Of a DNA stretch of 64,000 nt, positions 9,213-21,705 are shown in pieces. The translations under genes were made by a program, and so were the position numbers. The stretch's first letter is position 1. Every line of letters starts with the position of its first letter. The stretch is from Chryseolinea soli (lineage in GTDB: Bacteria > Bacteroidota > Bacteroidia > Cytophagales > Cyclobacteriaceae), in contig NZ_CP032382.1 in NCBI RefSeq assembly GCF_003589925.1, positions 7,812,001 to 7,876,000 of the forward strand. Reading direction: 5' to 3'. Below the pieces are notes generated by a model that worked only from the letters and a program-made list of their open reading frames with translations, did no database searches and was not told the DNA's origin.

Positions 9213-9683
9213 CTAGATCACGGCTTGTTGCTCGGCATACACTTCATCGCGAAGTGCTTTGTAGTGATTTTCGAAGGCGATCACTTTCTTCAACACGGCT
9301 TTGAATTGAATTTCTTTTTGAAGCAATGCGTGGATATGGGCCAGGAAAGTATTCAACGTGTCAAGTTGTGCGGCTTCAAGATCGATCTCGAAAGATCTTT
9401 CATCGCGGTTAAACACAAACTTCAGCTCCTTGGAGCGGTTGAATTCTATCAACCCCTTGATCAAAATAAAGTGGGCGGCAAACGCTTCTTTCACCTGAAA
9501 GGCCAGGCTCACCCGGTCGTTGTACCCAAAGGCGGTCGAGGGAATATAAAAACCATTCTCTTCGAAAACGAAATTCAGGTTTGTTGAAACGGCTTCAACA
9601 CGTTTAGCAGGAGCAAAAGAAACTTCTGCTGTGGAGATATACAAAGATTGTTCGGATGACAATACCGATGCGGTCTGTGACAT
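9213..9683 (-). CDS. Hypothetical protein, 156 residues
   Basis: Not recognised. The start chosen is ATG 9683 (MSQTASVLSSEQ); the frame is open upstream to 9761, but that part is Leu- and Pro-rich and looks like noise. The product has no signal peptide and no membrane helix. It appears to be a beta-rich N-terminal half (LYISTAEVSFAP, LNFVFEENGFYIPS, VSLAFQVKEAF) followed by alternating charged and hydrophobic helices (LDTLNTFLAHIHALLQKEI, then AVLKKVIAFENHYKALRDEV). It is probably cytosolic. Neighbours give no clue: repeats lie downstream and a 393-base gap upstream. Confidence 0.6.
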   Translation of the reverse strand: MSQTASVLSSEQSLYISTAEVSFAPAKRVEAVSTNLNFVFEENGFYIPSTAFGYNDRVSLAFQVKEAFAAHFILIKGLIEFNRSKELKFVFNRDERSFEIDLEAAQLDTLNTFLAHIHALLQKEIQFKAVLKKVIAFENHYKALRDEVYAEQQAVI

Positions 9684-10076
9684 GGTCGTAAGATTTTTTT
9701 GTTGTTGTGAATCGATTGAATAAAGCGGAGGTGGACTGGCCGTCAACAACAGCAACAACACGTTTGTGAGAGGAAGGAGAGATTTTGAATGTTTTTCATG
9801 GCTTTTGTACTTATTTATATTCCCTAATCATTTAGGCAGAATTTAGCACCTTTTCCCCGGTGATGAGGCGAGGTTGCAATAGGTTCAACGAGTCTGCTCT
9901 CTCCCCTATTCTTTATAAATATGAAACAAATGTAGGCTATAAATCTATTAAGTCAATAGAGTTTGTGGAATTATTTAAAAATTATTTTTCCGCGTCCCAA
10001 AAGGGCTATTTATCAGTATGTTACAAAAACGAACGCGCTTTAAAAACCTGGAAAGCAGTCGACTTTTTTGTTGGGC
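9684..10076. other. Intergenic region of 393 bases
   Basis: AT-rich, with several short open frames that have no coding character. It must hold the promoter for the minus-strand hypothetical gene ending at 9213. No RNA gene, repeat or strong hairpin was seen. Confidence 0.5.
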
Positions 10077-11889: not shown

Positions 11890-12783
11890 CTAGGGCATTT
11901 TGATCATGGGAAATAGGCGGCGTATTTCTTCGGGGGTTGGTTGGGTGCCGTATTCGCATATTTCGAATGATTCGGCGTGTTGGGCGGCTTGGGCTTTTTC
12001 TTTTCCGTAGCCGGTCTCCAGGGTTTTGCGCGCTTCGGGGGTTATTTTCCGGGTGTAGCGTGTGGCCAGCCATTTGATTCGTCCGGGCCCTTCGGCGGGT
12101 ACTTCGGTGGCGTAGTTGCCAATCCAGGGAAGCCATTCGTATACCTGGGATCTATGGGCATCGAGGGCGTTTACTTTTTTGTCGAACACCGCGGTGATGT
12201 CCACAGAGATGTCGGGGCGGAAGGGATTGGGGCGTTGGAAGTAATCTTCAAAATAGAGGAACACGGGGTTCTTGCGCAGCGCCGGTACATCAGAGGCTAC
12301 GTTGGGCACGCCTACCATGAAAGCGGCGTCTTGCACCAACACACCCGTGTAGCGATGGTCGGGGTGATAGTCGTTCGGACGGGGACTGATCACTACATCA
12401 GCGTTCCACTCGCGGATCTCGCGGATGATCTCTAGTCGCACGTTCAGCGTGGGCAACAGCTCGCCGTCGTGGTTGGGCAGTATGTGATAGGCCGCGATCC
12501 CCAATCGACGGGCCGACTCTTGTGCTTCTTCGTAGCGGCGTTTCGCCAGCGGGCCGCCACCGGTCGTTTGATGACCAGCATCGCCGTTGGTCACGGCCAC
12601 AAATTTCACGGCATAACCCATCGCAGCAAAGAGCGCTGCGGTGCCACCACCCTTGATATCACAATCGTCGGGGTGCGCACCAATCATGACGATTCTTATA
12701 GGTTGCGGGGTCTGTGCGAAACCGGTGATGGTGATCAGTAGGAACACCGGTACGATGAGGAAGTTAAGTCTGTGACGTTTCAT
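11890..12783 (-). CDS. Secreted PIG-L/LmbE family deacetylase
   Basis: Zn-dependent amidohydrolase of the LmbE-like fold, which removes acetyl groups from N-acetylglucosamine-type substrates in characterised members. The start ATG 12783 is preferred over ATG 12801 because it puts the basic n-region directly before the hydrophobic core (MKRHRLNFLIVPVFLLITIT) with cleavage near GFAQ. Metal ligands are visible as AHPDD (His37, Asp40) and HPDH (His140, His143). GGGTAALFAAMG after the first motif is typical. At 297 residues it is the usual size. The signal peptide indicates periplasmic or surface action on a glycan, but the substrate cannot be told from context. Confidence 0.9.
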   Translation of the reverse strand: MKRHRLNFLIVPVFLLITITGFAQTPQPIRIVMIGAHPDDCDIKGGGTAALFAAMGYAVKFVAVTNGDAGHQTTGGGPLAKRRYEEAQESARRLGIAAYHILPNHDGELLPTLNVRLEIIREIREWNADVVISPRPNDYHPDHRYTGVLVQDAAFMVGVPNVASDVPALRKNPVFLYFEDYFQRPNPFRPDISVDITAVFDKKVNALDAHRSQVYEWLPWIGNYATEVPAEGPGRIKWLATRYTRKITPEARKTLETGYGKEKAQAAQHAESFEICEYGTQPTPEEIRRLFPMIKMP

Positions 12784-13067
12784 ACGGAAGGGGGTTATCA
12801 ATACCTGTTCGTAAGTAATGTTACAAAAGAATTGCCTCGTATCCTTCGGTGCTGTGCCTTATTTTATGTTCGGTCTGGAAAACCTTCGAACGCACTTTTT
12901 ACCACACGGCCTATCCAGGCATAAGGTTGTTCCGCGCCCTGTGCGAAAGATACCCGTCGCGACGTTGTGGTTGACAGAACGGATGTGTACCTGCTAATTC
13001 GCTATCTTTACTTAACAGGTCATTGCACCTGAAAAGAGGAATATTTTTCAGACCAATCCGAACCTCC

Positions 13068-18961: not shown

Positions 18962-20731
18962 TTACCTTCTTTTGGCGGACCTCAGTTTGTGTAGCACGGC
19001 GACTAACGCGTCGACGTCGGCGCAGGTGTTATAAAACGCCAGCGAAGGACGAACGGTGCTCTCCACCCCAAACCTGCGCAAAATGGGCTGTGCGCAATGG
19101 TGGCCGGTTCTCACGGCGATGCCTTCTTTGTTCAACGCCTGCCCTACTTCGTCGTTCGTATAGCCGTCGAGCACGAACGACATGACACTGGCTTTGTCGG
19201 GGGCCGTGCCGATCAGACGCAAACCCGGAACCTGTTTTAACAGTTGTGTCCCATAAAGCAAAAGAGCGTGTTCGTATTGGTTGATGAGGTCCATGCCGAT
19301 GCGGCTCACATAGTCGAGGGCAGCGCCCAGGCCCACCGCGTCGGCGATGTTGCCCGTGCCGGCTTCGAATCGTCCGGGGGCCTTGTGAAACTCGGTGTGC
19401 TCGAAGGTCACGTCCTTGATCATGTTGCCTCCGCCCTGCCAGGGTTGCATCTGGTTTAGGATCTCTTCCTTTCCATAGACTGCACCGATGCCGGTGGGTC
19501 CAAATATTTTGTGACCCGAGAAAACAAAAAAATCGGGGTTCAACTGTTGCAGGTCGACTCGCATGTGCGACACCGACTGGGCACCGTCGAGCAAAACCTT
19601 CGCGCCTGCTGTGTGCGCCATGTCGATGATGACCTGGGCCGGTGTTACGGTCCCCAGCGCGTTGGATACCTGCGTGAACGACACCAGTTTCGTTTTGCTG
19701 TTGAGTAGCTTGCCGTATTCGTCCAACCGGATCTGTCCATCGTCGTCGACGGGGATCACGCGGATCTTAAAGCCCTTTTTTTCGGCGAGCAATTGCCAGG
19801 GCACAATGTTGGCGTGGTGTTCGAGATGACTGAGAATGATCTCGTCGCCGGCATTCAGGTTTTGATCGCCCCAGCTTTGCGCAATGAGGTTGATCCCCTC
19901 GGTTGTGCCACGGACAAAGATGATCTCGTTGGGCGAGCCTGCATTGAGGAAGCGCTGTACTTTTTTACGCGCCCCTTCAAACGCATCCGTAGCACGGGCC
20001 GCCAACTCGTGGGCGGCGCGGTGGATGTTGGAGTTTTCGTGTTCGTAAAATTCGCTGATGCGATCGATGACGAACTTTGGCTTTTGCGTGGTGGCCGCAT
20101 TGTCGAGCCAGACCAATGATTTTCCGTTGACCCGTTCCTTTAAAATCGGAAAATCACCTTTGACGCGATTGATGTCGAAAGGAGGCCGCACGATGCCGAC
20201 ATCGCCAGGCATGGGCGTTGGCGTGCTGTCGTTTAGAAAATAAAATGACGTCGGATGCATGCCCGGGAAAGGATTAACGGGCAACTGCGGTGTGGCCATG
20301 AAAGAATTGATCTGGCGAAGCACCTGGTTCAATTCCTGCTCGAAGGGTTGTTCCGATTGAAAAGGCAAGCGGTGCGATGATTTGTTGCTTGCCGATTCCG
20401 TGCTATAGTTTCCGCTGGGGTTCTGCAAAGACGGCGACCGGCCACTACCGGCAACTGACTTTGGGATCTCGCCATTGTAAAAATGGGGATCGGGCAAACT
20501 GGTTTGCGGATCCTTGATGTCAAAACTTTCCGGGTGATTGATCTGGGAATTGGACGTTCCTGCCGCCGGCGAAAAATCGCTCACTTGGTTTTCGGCTACC
20601 GGGTTCGCCTGGGCAAACCGTTGTGCCGACTCCATGGACGGGTCGCCCGCCGGTGCAGCTTTAAAATACTGATTGGCCAGCCGCTCCAGTTCCCGGACGT
20701 CGGGCAGATTATCTTGATTGAAATTGTTCAT
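18962..20731 (-). CDS. Family 2A encapsulin cargo: cysteine desulfurase (SufS-like) with N-terminal targeting extension
   Basis: PLP enzyme that takes sulfur from L-cysteine, leaving alanine and an enzyme persulfide. Residues 185-589 are a group II (SufS/CsdA) desulfurase: NAATTQKP near 211, LEHHANIVPW near 303, the PLP lysine Lys408 in SGHKIFGPTG and the active cysteine Cys546 in RTGHHCAQP. Ordinary SufS is about 405 residues; this protein has about 184 more at the N-terminus, rich in Pro, Ser, Asn and Gln and probably disordered. Two short helical segments stand out, VRELERLANQYFKA (12-25) and EQELNQVLRQINSFM (131-145). In family 2A encapsulins such extensions load the desulfurase into the shell. 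The shell gene is directly upstream (53-base gap, same strand). Known members of this pair store elemental sulfur. Confidence 0.93.
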   Translation of the reverse strand: MNNFNQDNLPDVRELERLANQYFKAAPAGDPSMESAQRFAQANPVAENQVSDFSPAAGTSNSQINHPESFDIKDPQTSLPDPHFYNGEIPKSVAGSGRSPSLQNPSGNYSTESASNKSSHRLPFQSEQPFEQELNQVLRQINSFMATPQLPVNPFPGMHPTSFYFLNDSTPTPMPGDVGIVRPPFDINRVKGDFPILKERVNGKSLVWLDNAATTQKPKFVIDRISEFYEHENSNIHRAAHELAARATDAFEGARKKVQRFLNAGSPNEIIFVRGTTEGINLIAQSWGDQNLNAGDEIILSHLEHHANIVPWQLLAEKKGFKIRVIPVDDDGQIRLDEYGKLLNSKTKLVSFTQVSNALGTVTPAQVIIDMAHTAGAKVLLDGAQSVSHMRVDLQQLNPDFFVFSGHKIFGPTGIGAVYGKEEILNQMQPWQGGGNMIKDVTFEHTEFHKAPGRFEAGTGNIADAVGLGAALDYVSRIGMDLINQYEHALLLYGTQLLKQVPGLRLIGTAPDKASVMSFVLDGYTNDEVGQALNKEGIAVRTGHHCAQPILRRFGVESTVRPSLAFYNTCADVDALVAVLHKLRSAKRR

Positions 20732-20784
20732 GACCGTGTGTTAAGAAATGGGACAAACGCCATTCACCAGGGACAAAAATTCCC

Positions 20785-21705
20785 TCAATATTTGTATTCG
20801 TGGTACTTGGTGATGTCCACGTCTTCCAGCACGGCGATGGCATCGTCTACCAGCACAGCGATGGAACAATACAAGGCGATCAGGTAAGAGGCAATAGCCT
20901 TATCGTTGATGCCCATGAATCGCACCGACAATCCCGGGGTTTGCTCGCCGGGCAGGTTGGGCTGATACAGGCCGACCACACCCTGACGTGCTTCGCCCGT
21001 GCGGAGCAATATTATTTTTGACTTGCCATTGGTGATCGGGAGTTTGTCGCTCGGGATCAGCGGAATGCCGCGCCACGTGATGAATTGTGAGCCAAACAAC
21101 GAGACGGTTGGCGGCGGAACACCTCTGCGTGTACACTCGCGACCAAAGGCAGCAATGGTCAGTGGATGAAGCAAAAAGAAGCCCGGCTCTTTCCACACTT
21201 TGGCCAGCAATTCGTCCAGGTCGTCGGGCGTGGGGGCGCCGGTGCGGGTTTTGATGGTCTGACTTGCCGGCGTACTGCTGATCAAGCCATACTCTTTATT
21301 ATTGATGAGCTCGCTTTCCTGGCGCTCTTTGATGGCTTCGATGGCCAGCCGGAGTTGTTCACTGATTTGATTGTAGGGCCGGCTATACAGATCGGACACA
21401 CGCGTGTGCACATCCACCAGGGTGTTGACGGCGCTGAGGTTATATTCACGCGGGTTGGCATCGTAGTCCACGTACGTGTGAGGAAGCACGTGCTCGTCGC
21501 GCGTGGAGCAATCCACCTCGATGTTTTGGGCGTCCTTCACTTTGTTGAGCCGGTACACGCCCGACTCCACAGGAACCCAGCTCATGAGGTGCGTCAACCA
21601 GCGCGGTGTGATCGTTACCATTTGAGGCACGGTGCGGGTGGCAATGGCCAACTGTCGTGCGGCTACATCATCGAGGGCGGTTTGATTTTTGATTTTCTCT
21701 GCCAT
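20785..21705 (-). CDS. Family 2A encapsulin nanocompartment shell protein (SrpI-like)
   Basis: 306 residues with the HK97-type encapsulin fold. Recognised from the family 2A features: a long N-terminal arm, SWVPVESGVYRLNKV (about 42-56), the YDANPREYNLSAVNTLVDVHTRVSDLY stretch (quoted in part: YDANPREYNLSAVNTLVDVH), RPYNQISEQLRLAIEAIKER, a P-domain with FGRECTRRGVPPPTV and FITWRGIPLIPSDKLP, and the C-terminal SVRFMGINDKAIASYLIALY. There is no room for the cyclic-nucleotide-binding insertion that marks family 2B. Sixty copies would be expected to form an icosahedral shell of about 24 nm. It is the first gene of a two-gene operon with its cargo desulfurase; the serine acetyltransferase gene often seen beside such pairs is absent here. 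Confidence 0.93.
   Translation of the reverse strand: MAEKIKNQTALDDVAARQLAIATRTVPQMVTITPRWLTHLMSWVPVESGVYRLNKVKDAQNIEVDCSTRDEHVLPHTYVDYDANPREYNLSAVNTLVDVHTRVSDLYSRPYNQISEQLRLAIEAIKERQESELINNKEYGLISSTPASQTIKTRTGAPTPDDLDELLAKVWKEPGFFLLHPLTIAAFGRECTRRGVPPPTVSLFGSQFITWRGIPLIPSDKLPITNGKSKIILLRTGEARQGVVGLYQPNLPGEQTPGLSVRFMGINDKAIASYLIALYCSIAVLVDDAIAVLEDVDITKYHEYKY

What the first reader, a model, noticed from the sequence alone, without database searches (positions are those of the whole stretch)
18962..21705. Two-gene family 2A encapsulin sulfur compartment in a Bacteroidota genome
The shell protein (20785-21705) and a cysteine desulfurase with about 184 extra N-terminal residues (18962-20731) are adjacent, co-oriented and 53 bases apart. 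The desulfurase keeps Lys408 and Cys546, so it should be active inside the shell. Family knowledge: such pairs sequester elemental sulfur. What is different here is the minimal form: no serine acetyltransferase, no rhodanese and no second shell gene, with a sugar-oxidation operon on one side and a CHAD gene on the other.
Basis: partly seen in the sequence, partly recalled or inferred. Interest (0 to 1): 0.85.

Follow-up and report, generated by a model that had tools for sequence, protein, structure and literature searches.

The report
Ordinary family 2A encapsulin–desulfurase pair
Two neighbouring genes in a Chryseolinea bacterium encode a known kind of protein nanocage and the sulfur-releasing enzyme expected to be packed inside it; the pair is a typical member of a family already catalogued in many bacteria, and its supposed 'minimal' layout is common.

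Summary
20785-21705(-) encodes a family 2A encapsulin shell (526 bits to NCBIfam encap_f2a; 73% identical to SrpI over 299 aligned residues). 18962-20731(-) encodes its cargo cysteine desulfurase (885 bits to NCBIfam f2_encap_cargo1, matched almost end to end), with Lys408 and Cys546 intact and both published N-terminal motifs present. Both genes are under strong purifying selection against Chryseolinea serpens. The claimed novelty fails. Of 70 relatives with enough flank, 24 also lack a linked serine acetyltransferase and cysteine synthase; no rhodanese-like ORF was found within 1.5 kb of the pair in 80 loci; two shell genes are a 2B trait. The sugar-oxidation and CHAD genes look incidental: C. 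lacunae carries the pair elsewhere, without them. An acetyltransferase/cysteine synthase pair and a separate SufS lie elsewhere in the genome. The copies in Chryseolinea are not one clade, which suggests horizontal transfer. Sulfur storage is inferred from published homologues, not shown here. One modest extra: a repeated SVAGSGxSPS-type module in Bacteroidota cargo tails. More interesting is something noticed in passing: SAM riboswitches followed by poly-cysteine leader peptides, one of them in this window.

The parts
20785..21705 (-). family 2A encapsulin shell protein, 306 aa
   Evidence: NF041162 526.4 bits; PF19307 353.7 bits; phmmer to SrpI 6x8m 503.6 bits; dN/dS 0.016 against C. serpens
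18962..20731 (-). cargo cysteine desulfurase (CyD), 589 aa
   Evidence: NF041166 885.3 bits; PF00266 485 bits; dN/dS 0.036 against C. serpens
20180..20731 (-). N-terminal extension of the cargo (residues 1-184), predicted mostly disordered, the loading domain by homology
   Evidence: AlphaFold2 pLDDT under 50 for residues 25-128 and 138-179; purifying selection within the genus, dN/dS 0.043
20663..20689 (-). conserved motif LERLANQYF (residues 15-23), counterpart of the published LARLANEFFS
   Evidence: pattern in 79 of 80 cargo extensions, 35 of 4000 shuffles; lies in predicted helix 12-24; motif published in PMC8049743
20234..20245 (-). conserved motif FYFL (residues 163-166), counterpart of the published AASPYYFLDG
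   Evidence: pattern in 77 of 80, 83 of 4000 shuffles
20429..20512 (-). repeat-type module DPQTSLPDPHF...SVAGSGRSPS (residues 74-101), one copy here; GxGxSP occurs 1-4 times in relatives that have it
   Evidence: GxGxSP in 75 of 80 Bacteroidota cargo extensions, 0.018 per shuffled extension; not enriched in 8 non-Bacteroidota 2A cargos or 21 2B cargos
18983..20179 (-). SufS-type catalytic domain (residues 185-583); Lys408 codon 19508-19510, Cys546 codon 19094-19096
   Evidence: TIGR01979 sufS 555.9 bits; K408 and C546 identical in 80 of 80

Best explanation
This is a standard family 2A encapsulin operon. The shell gene is followed by a SufS-type cysteine desulfurase whose disordered N-terminal tail should dock it to the inner face of a 60-subunit HK97-fold shell. 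Free cysteine would enter through the five-fold pore, the enzyme would release alanine and hold the sulfur as a persulfide on Cys546, and the shell would keep the released sulfur apart from the cytosol as a reserve. Shown here: gene identity, family membership, intact catalytic residues, conserved tail motifs, purifying selection, a separate SufS for housekeeping, and separate cysteine-synthesis genes. Inferred from homologues: assembly, loading and sulfur storage. The pair appears to have spread horizontally as a two-gene unit. Rough odds: identity 0.97, cargo inside shell 0.9, storage as the main role 0.6.
For: Both proteins pass the family-specific NCBIfam cut-offs. The pore residues Gly194 and Pro196 and the three-fold contact residues Phe262 and Tyr273 named for SrpI are all kept, as Gly195, Pro197, Phe263 and Tyr274. 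Tail motifs kept in 79 and 77 of 80 cargos. dN/dS 0.016 (shell) and 0.036 (cargo) against C. serpens. The genome has another SufS-family gene at 5.15 Mb (TIGR01979 587 bits) and an acetyltransferase/CysM pair at 4.93 Mb. A Chryseolinea orthologue already bears the family 2A cargo name in a public source.
Against: No experiment. The elemental-sulfur paper (Benisch 2024) is not held; it was seen only as a reference. In S. elongatus, knock-outs of shell and cargo gave no growth phenotype (PMC8049743), so the role is open even in the best-studied case. SrpI pore residue Arg304 is Lys305 here. My structure model of the shell was too poor to use (mean pLDDT 47.4). The acetyltransferase at 4.93 Mb scores below the curated cysE cut-off.
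Confidence: 0.85

Rival explanations
1. Same nanocompartment, but its job is regulated delivery of sulfur (or disposal of excess cysteine) to specific acceptors rather than storage.
For: Published proposal for systems linked to rhodaneses (PMC8346489, Family 2 section part 1); encapsulation raises SrpI-CyD activity about sevenfold (PMC8049743).
Against: No linked acceptor gene here, and no rhodanese-like ORF within 1.5 kb of the pair in any of the 80 nearest loci, some of which have short flanks. Acceptors could be encoded elsewhere: the genome has seven rhodanese-domain matches.
Confidence: 0.3
2. The shell is a capsid gene of a prophage remnant and the desulfurase is a chance neighbour.
For: Distant similarity to phage major head proteins: PHROG 212 at 27.2 bits, and capsid proteins annotated on E. 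coli-type plasmids at 27.6% identity.
Against: 526 bits to the 2A model; the desulfurase lies next to the shell in 79 of 80 relatives; strong purifying selection.
Confidence: 0.01
3. The pair works together with the adjacent sugar-oxidation genes or the CHAD gene as one functional unit.
For: The neighbourhood is kept in C. serpens.
Against: In C. lacunae the pair stands elsewhere; 19 window genes searched against 19.5 kb around it gave only shell, cargo and weak ABC-permease-type matches; the CHAD homologue is on another contig and the gluconolactonase gene had no match in that genome. The sugar genes are on the opposite strand, divergent from the shell.
Confidence: 0.03

Closest known systems
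Synechococcus elongatus SrpI/CyD (PDB 6x8m; family 2A)
   Same: Shell 73% identical over 299 aligned residues; cargo with disordered tail, the same two motif types and a SufS domain
   Different: There the operon also holds cysK, epsC and a rhodanese; the window pair has none linked. Cargo tail is 184 residues here, 225 in CyD by the paper's count
Family 2A desulfurase operons of Bacteroidota, e.g. Pseudarcicella, Chitinophaga, Flavobacterium, Mucilaginibacter
   Same: 82-88% shell identity, cargo directly downstream
   Different: Of 80 loci, 45 carry an acetyltransferase and 25 a cysteine synthase nearby; the window belongs to the group without either
Family 2B encapsulins with desulfurase cargo
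   Same: Homologous shell core; desulfurase cargo in some
   Different: 2B shells carry an inserted cyclic-nucleotide domain; the window shell does not

Membership tests
Family 2A encapsulin shell | Family-specific profile above the curated cut-off | tested here: met
   NF041162 526.4 bits, cut-off 380
Family 2A encapsulin shell | No internal cyclic-nucleotide-binding domain | tested here: met
   306 aa; only PF19307 in Pfam; best 2B stretch starts at profile position 209 of 450
Family 2A encapsulin shell | HK97 fold and T=1 assembly of 60 subunits | tested here: inconclusive
   Fold supported by 73% identity to SrpI, but my AlphaFold2 model was poor; assembly not testable
Family 2A cargo desulfurase | SufS-type domain with catalytic Lys and Cys | tested here: met
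Family 2A cargo desulfurase | Disordered N-terminal tail with the LAN- and YYFL-type motifs | tested here: met
Family 2A cargo desulfurase | Physical encapsulation | not testable with these tools
   Needs co-purification
Sulfur-storing encapsulin | Accumulates elemental sulfur in the shell | not testable with these tools
   Literature only; primary paper not held
Family 2B encapsulin | Inserted cyclic-nucleotide-binding domain | tested here: not met
Phage capsid | Better match to phage head families than to encapsulins | tested here: not met
   27.2 bits against 526.4 bits

The most novel reading that the evidence does not exclude
Bacteroidota family 2A desulfurases carry, between the two published motifs, a repeated SLPDPHF...SVAGSGxSPS-type module (GxGxSP copies: 1 to 4 in those that have it) that acts as a multivalent shell anchor, so that copy number tunes how much enzyme is loaded or how it is spaced on the shell wall. 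The window cargo is a one-copy version.
Probability: 0.15. Interest if true: 0.4.

Novelty: already known. Interest (0 to 1): 0.15.

Why it matters
It matters mainly as a correction: a two-gene 2A encapsulin pair without cysteine-synthesis genes is a common layout in the nearest Bacteroidota, not a rarity, so linked acetyltransferases cannot be essential to the compartment's function. Two Chryseolinea loci with a full 2A shell and cargo look independently acquired, which suggests that shell plus cargo is the minimal transferable unit. The Bacteroidota-specific tail module is a concrete, easily tested candidate for a second loading signal.

Tried and rejected
Rejected: the idea that the SVAGSGxSPS module is the family 2 counterpart of the terpene-cyclase GPTGLGT motif. 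It was suggested by eye from PMC8346489 and did not hold up: GxGxS occurs in 3 of 8 non-Bacteroidota 2A cargo tails (shuffled fraction 0.16) and 3 of 21 2B cargo tails of Bacteroidota MAGs (0.14), that is, no clear enrichment. The pattern itself was found and counted on the same 80 Bacteroidota sequences, so its enrichment there is descriptive.

Rejected: control of the encapsulin by a cysteine leader. No poly-Cys small ORF lies within 400 bp upstream of the window shell, nor within 700 bp upstream in the 80 loci, some of which have less sequence. No SAM riboswitch lies upstream of the shell; the only Rfam match in the window is at 9812-9921. A scan of the 306-bp upstream region of window and C. 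serpens for a Bacteroidota-type promoter, with a consensus recalled from memory, found none.

Led nowhere: the shell structure model, mean pLDDT 47.4 from an alignment of 29 close relatives, so no fold search was made. A first extraction of cargo tails used a wrong start-codon rule and was replaced; the counts are not used.

Full report
What is there. The 306-residue protein scores 526.4 bits to the NCBIfam model for family 2A shells (cut-off 380) and 353.7 bits to Pfam SrpI-like. It also passes the 2B model's cut-off (428.3 against 400), but its best stretch covers only the capsid part of that model, positions 209-449. The best solved relative is SrpI (6x8m), 73% identical over 299 aligned residues. 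Phage head families score 27.2 bits at best. The 589-residue protein scores 885.3 bits to the NCBIfam model for family 2A cargo desulfurases (cut-off 800), residues 5-583 on profile positions 14-623 of 623.

Whose genome. The window is part of a single 8.24-Mb contig. So the host is a Chryseolinea; the species was not established. A public Chryseolinea orthologue of the cargo already carries the name family 2A encapsulin cargo desulfurase.

Is it working. Against C. serpens, dN/dS is 0.016 for the shell and 0.036 for the cargo, 0.043 for its N-terminal tail and 0.026 for the catalytic part. Lys408 and Cys546 are identical in 80 of 80 cargo proteins: 78 full-length ones from the 80 nearest loci (two were dropped, one partial and one without cargo because the contig ends), plus the window and C. 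serpens. Residues named for SrpI as pore lining (Gly194, Pro196) and as cargo contacts (Phe262, Tyr273) are kept one position later; Arg192 is kept and Arg304 is Lys. The two published tail motifs (PMC8049743, Results section) are present: the LAN-type pattern in 79 of 80 tails (35 of 4000 shuffles) and the YYFL-type in 77 of 80 (83 of 4000). In eight 2A cargos from outside Bacteroidota the loose LAN pattern occurs in 8 and the YYF pattern in 6. The cargo model shows a folded catalytic domain and a tail mostly under pLDDT 50, with a helix over the first motif.

Is the minimal form unusual. No. Among the 80 nearest loci that the search kept (capped; 552 relatives were confirmed), 79 have the cargo downstream in the same orientation. 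Of the 70 with at least 3.5 kb on both sides, 43 have an acetyltransferase, 23 a cysteine synthase and 24 neither. Representatives of those two clusters were checked by profile: cysE-type at 169.8 bits, below that model's cut-off of 210.65 but at the EpsC cut-off, and cysK above its cut-off. Rhodanese-like ORFs occur in 8 of 80 loci, none within 1.5 kb of the pair; 4 of the 24 'neither' loci have one further away. Flanks differ, so absences are lower bounds on linkage. Outside Bacteroidota, Methylosinus pOB3b1 also shows shell and cargo without these genes in the 3 kb shown. Family 2A desulfurase operons numbered 1281 in the 2021 survey, 111 of them in Bacteroidetes (PMC8346489, Family 2 section part 1). 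Two-shell operons are described for family 2B only (PMC12407261, passages).

Where the missing parts are. The genome has an acetyltransferase-like gene (cysE model 159.8 bits, below cut-off) next to a CysM gene (485.9 bits, cut-off 413) at 4.93 Mb, and a second SufS-family gene (TIGR01979 587.2 bits) at 5.15 Mb among genes that read as SufB, SufC, SufD and SufE; these last four were named by eye. The encapsulated enzyme is thus not the only candidate for iron-sulfur assembly.

Neighbours and history. The neighbourhood is the same in C. serpens but not in C. lacunae. In a sample of the window's family, 5 of 390 genomes have a shell match: three are close 2A shells (own, 99%, 85%) and two are distant (54% and 44%, in frames of about 470 aa, so 2B-like); of the six genomes of the genus, two have none. 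Order sample: 23 of 390. Phylum sample: 62 of 395, of which 7 are full-length 2A-type matches and 55, all in one family of MAGs, are split or partial 2B-type matches. In a tree of shell plus catalytic domain (35 rows chosen from the loci), the window and C. serpens do not group with C. lacunae; holding them together costs 55.3 log-likelihood units, p-AU 0.012. This was a quick tree with a single-matrix model, and the group was tested after a first tree had pointed that way. Patchiness, different sites and the tree together favour horizontal transfer of the two-gene unit; loss in some lineages also contributes to such patterns.

How it most likely works. By homology the tail docks the desulfurase inside a 60-subunit shell, cysteine enters through the five-fold pores, and sulfur is released inside. 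For S. elongatus, loading by the tail, three-fold contact density and a sevenfold activity gain were shown, and knock-outs of shell or cargo had no growth phenotype (PMC8049743). Sulfur storage is stated in later papers citing Benisch 2024, which I could not read.

What may be new. In Bacteroidota the tail holds a further element, GxGxSP, in 75 of 80 tails against 0.018 per shuffled tail, present 1 to 4 times where found, often inside SLPDPHF...SVAGSGxSPS. I saw no mention of it in the sections read. It is not enriched outside Bacteroidota 2A cargos, so it is a lineage trait of unknown role.

Noticed in passing. The window's SAM riboswitch (9812-9921 minus) is followed by an 18-codon ORF ending in five Cys codons (9743-9799 minus), then by a protein without cysteine or internal methionine. 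Four of the genome's five SAM riboswitches have such a leader. In a sample of the order, 10 of 30 SAM loci have it (at most one locus per genome, own included) against 0 of 1200 shuffles. The downstream genes with the leader read as O-acetylhomoserine sulfhydrylase in nine of ten and as a sulfite/nitrite reductase-like gene in one; of five loci examined without it, two read as cystathionine synthase/lyase, two as metH and one as unrelated (five of these proteins were checked by profile). Literature searches on this (listings only) showed no paper on it. This looks more novel than the finding itself.

Noticed in passing
window 9743-9921 (-); also L199, L200, L201 and ten loci of the order sample (L194, L209, L210, L212, L213, L216, L217, L218, L221, L230): SAM riboswitch (RF00162, 70.8 bits) followed within about 15 nt by a small ORF ending in a run of Cys codons (MKNIQNLSFLSQTCCCCC here). 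4 of 5 SAM riboswitches of the genome and 10 of 30 in the order sample have it, 0 of 1200 shuffles. With the leader the next gene reads mostly as O-acetylhomoserine sulfhydrylase; without it, cystathionine synthase/lyase or metH in 4 of 5 examined. Looks like a two-input SAM and cysteine sensor; no paper found in three searches.
   Followed up: partly
window 9213-9683 (-): 156-aa orphan protein downstream of the SAM riboswitch and poly-Cys leader: no Pfam or NCBIfam family (tested from the longer 182-codon frame), ten homologues, and neither it nor any of the ten has a cysteine or an internal methionine. Would fit a sulfur-sparing protein made under sulfur starvation.
   Followed up: partly
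L008-L030 and 55 genomes of one MAG family in the phylum sample: Family 2B-type shells are frequent in one Bacteroidota MAG family (55 of 395 sampled genomes, two genera), with a desulfurase next to the shell in 21 of the 23 loci held.
   Followed up: partly
plasmid records H73-H100: The 2A shell shows weak but detectable similarity (27.6% identity, E about 2e-6) to major capsid proteins annotated on E. coli-type plasmids of about 95-113 kb, possibly phage-plasmids and the nearest viral kin.
   Followed up: no
L035, L044, L081, L110 cargo tails: Repeated SVAGSGxSPS-type modules in cargo desulfurase tails, up to four GxGxSP copies.
   Followed up: yes
window 11890-12801 (-): PIG-L deacetylase with 117 bits to the bacillithiol enzyme model BshB1, below its cut-off of 182.5.
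   Followed up: no
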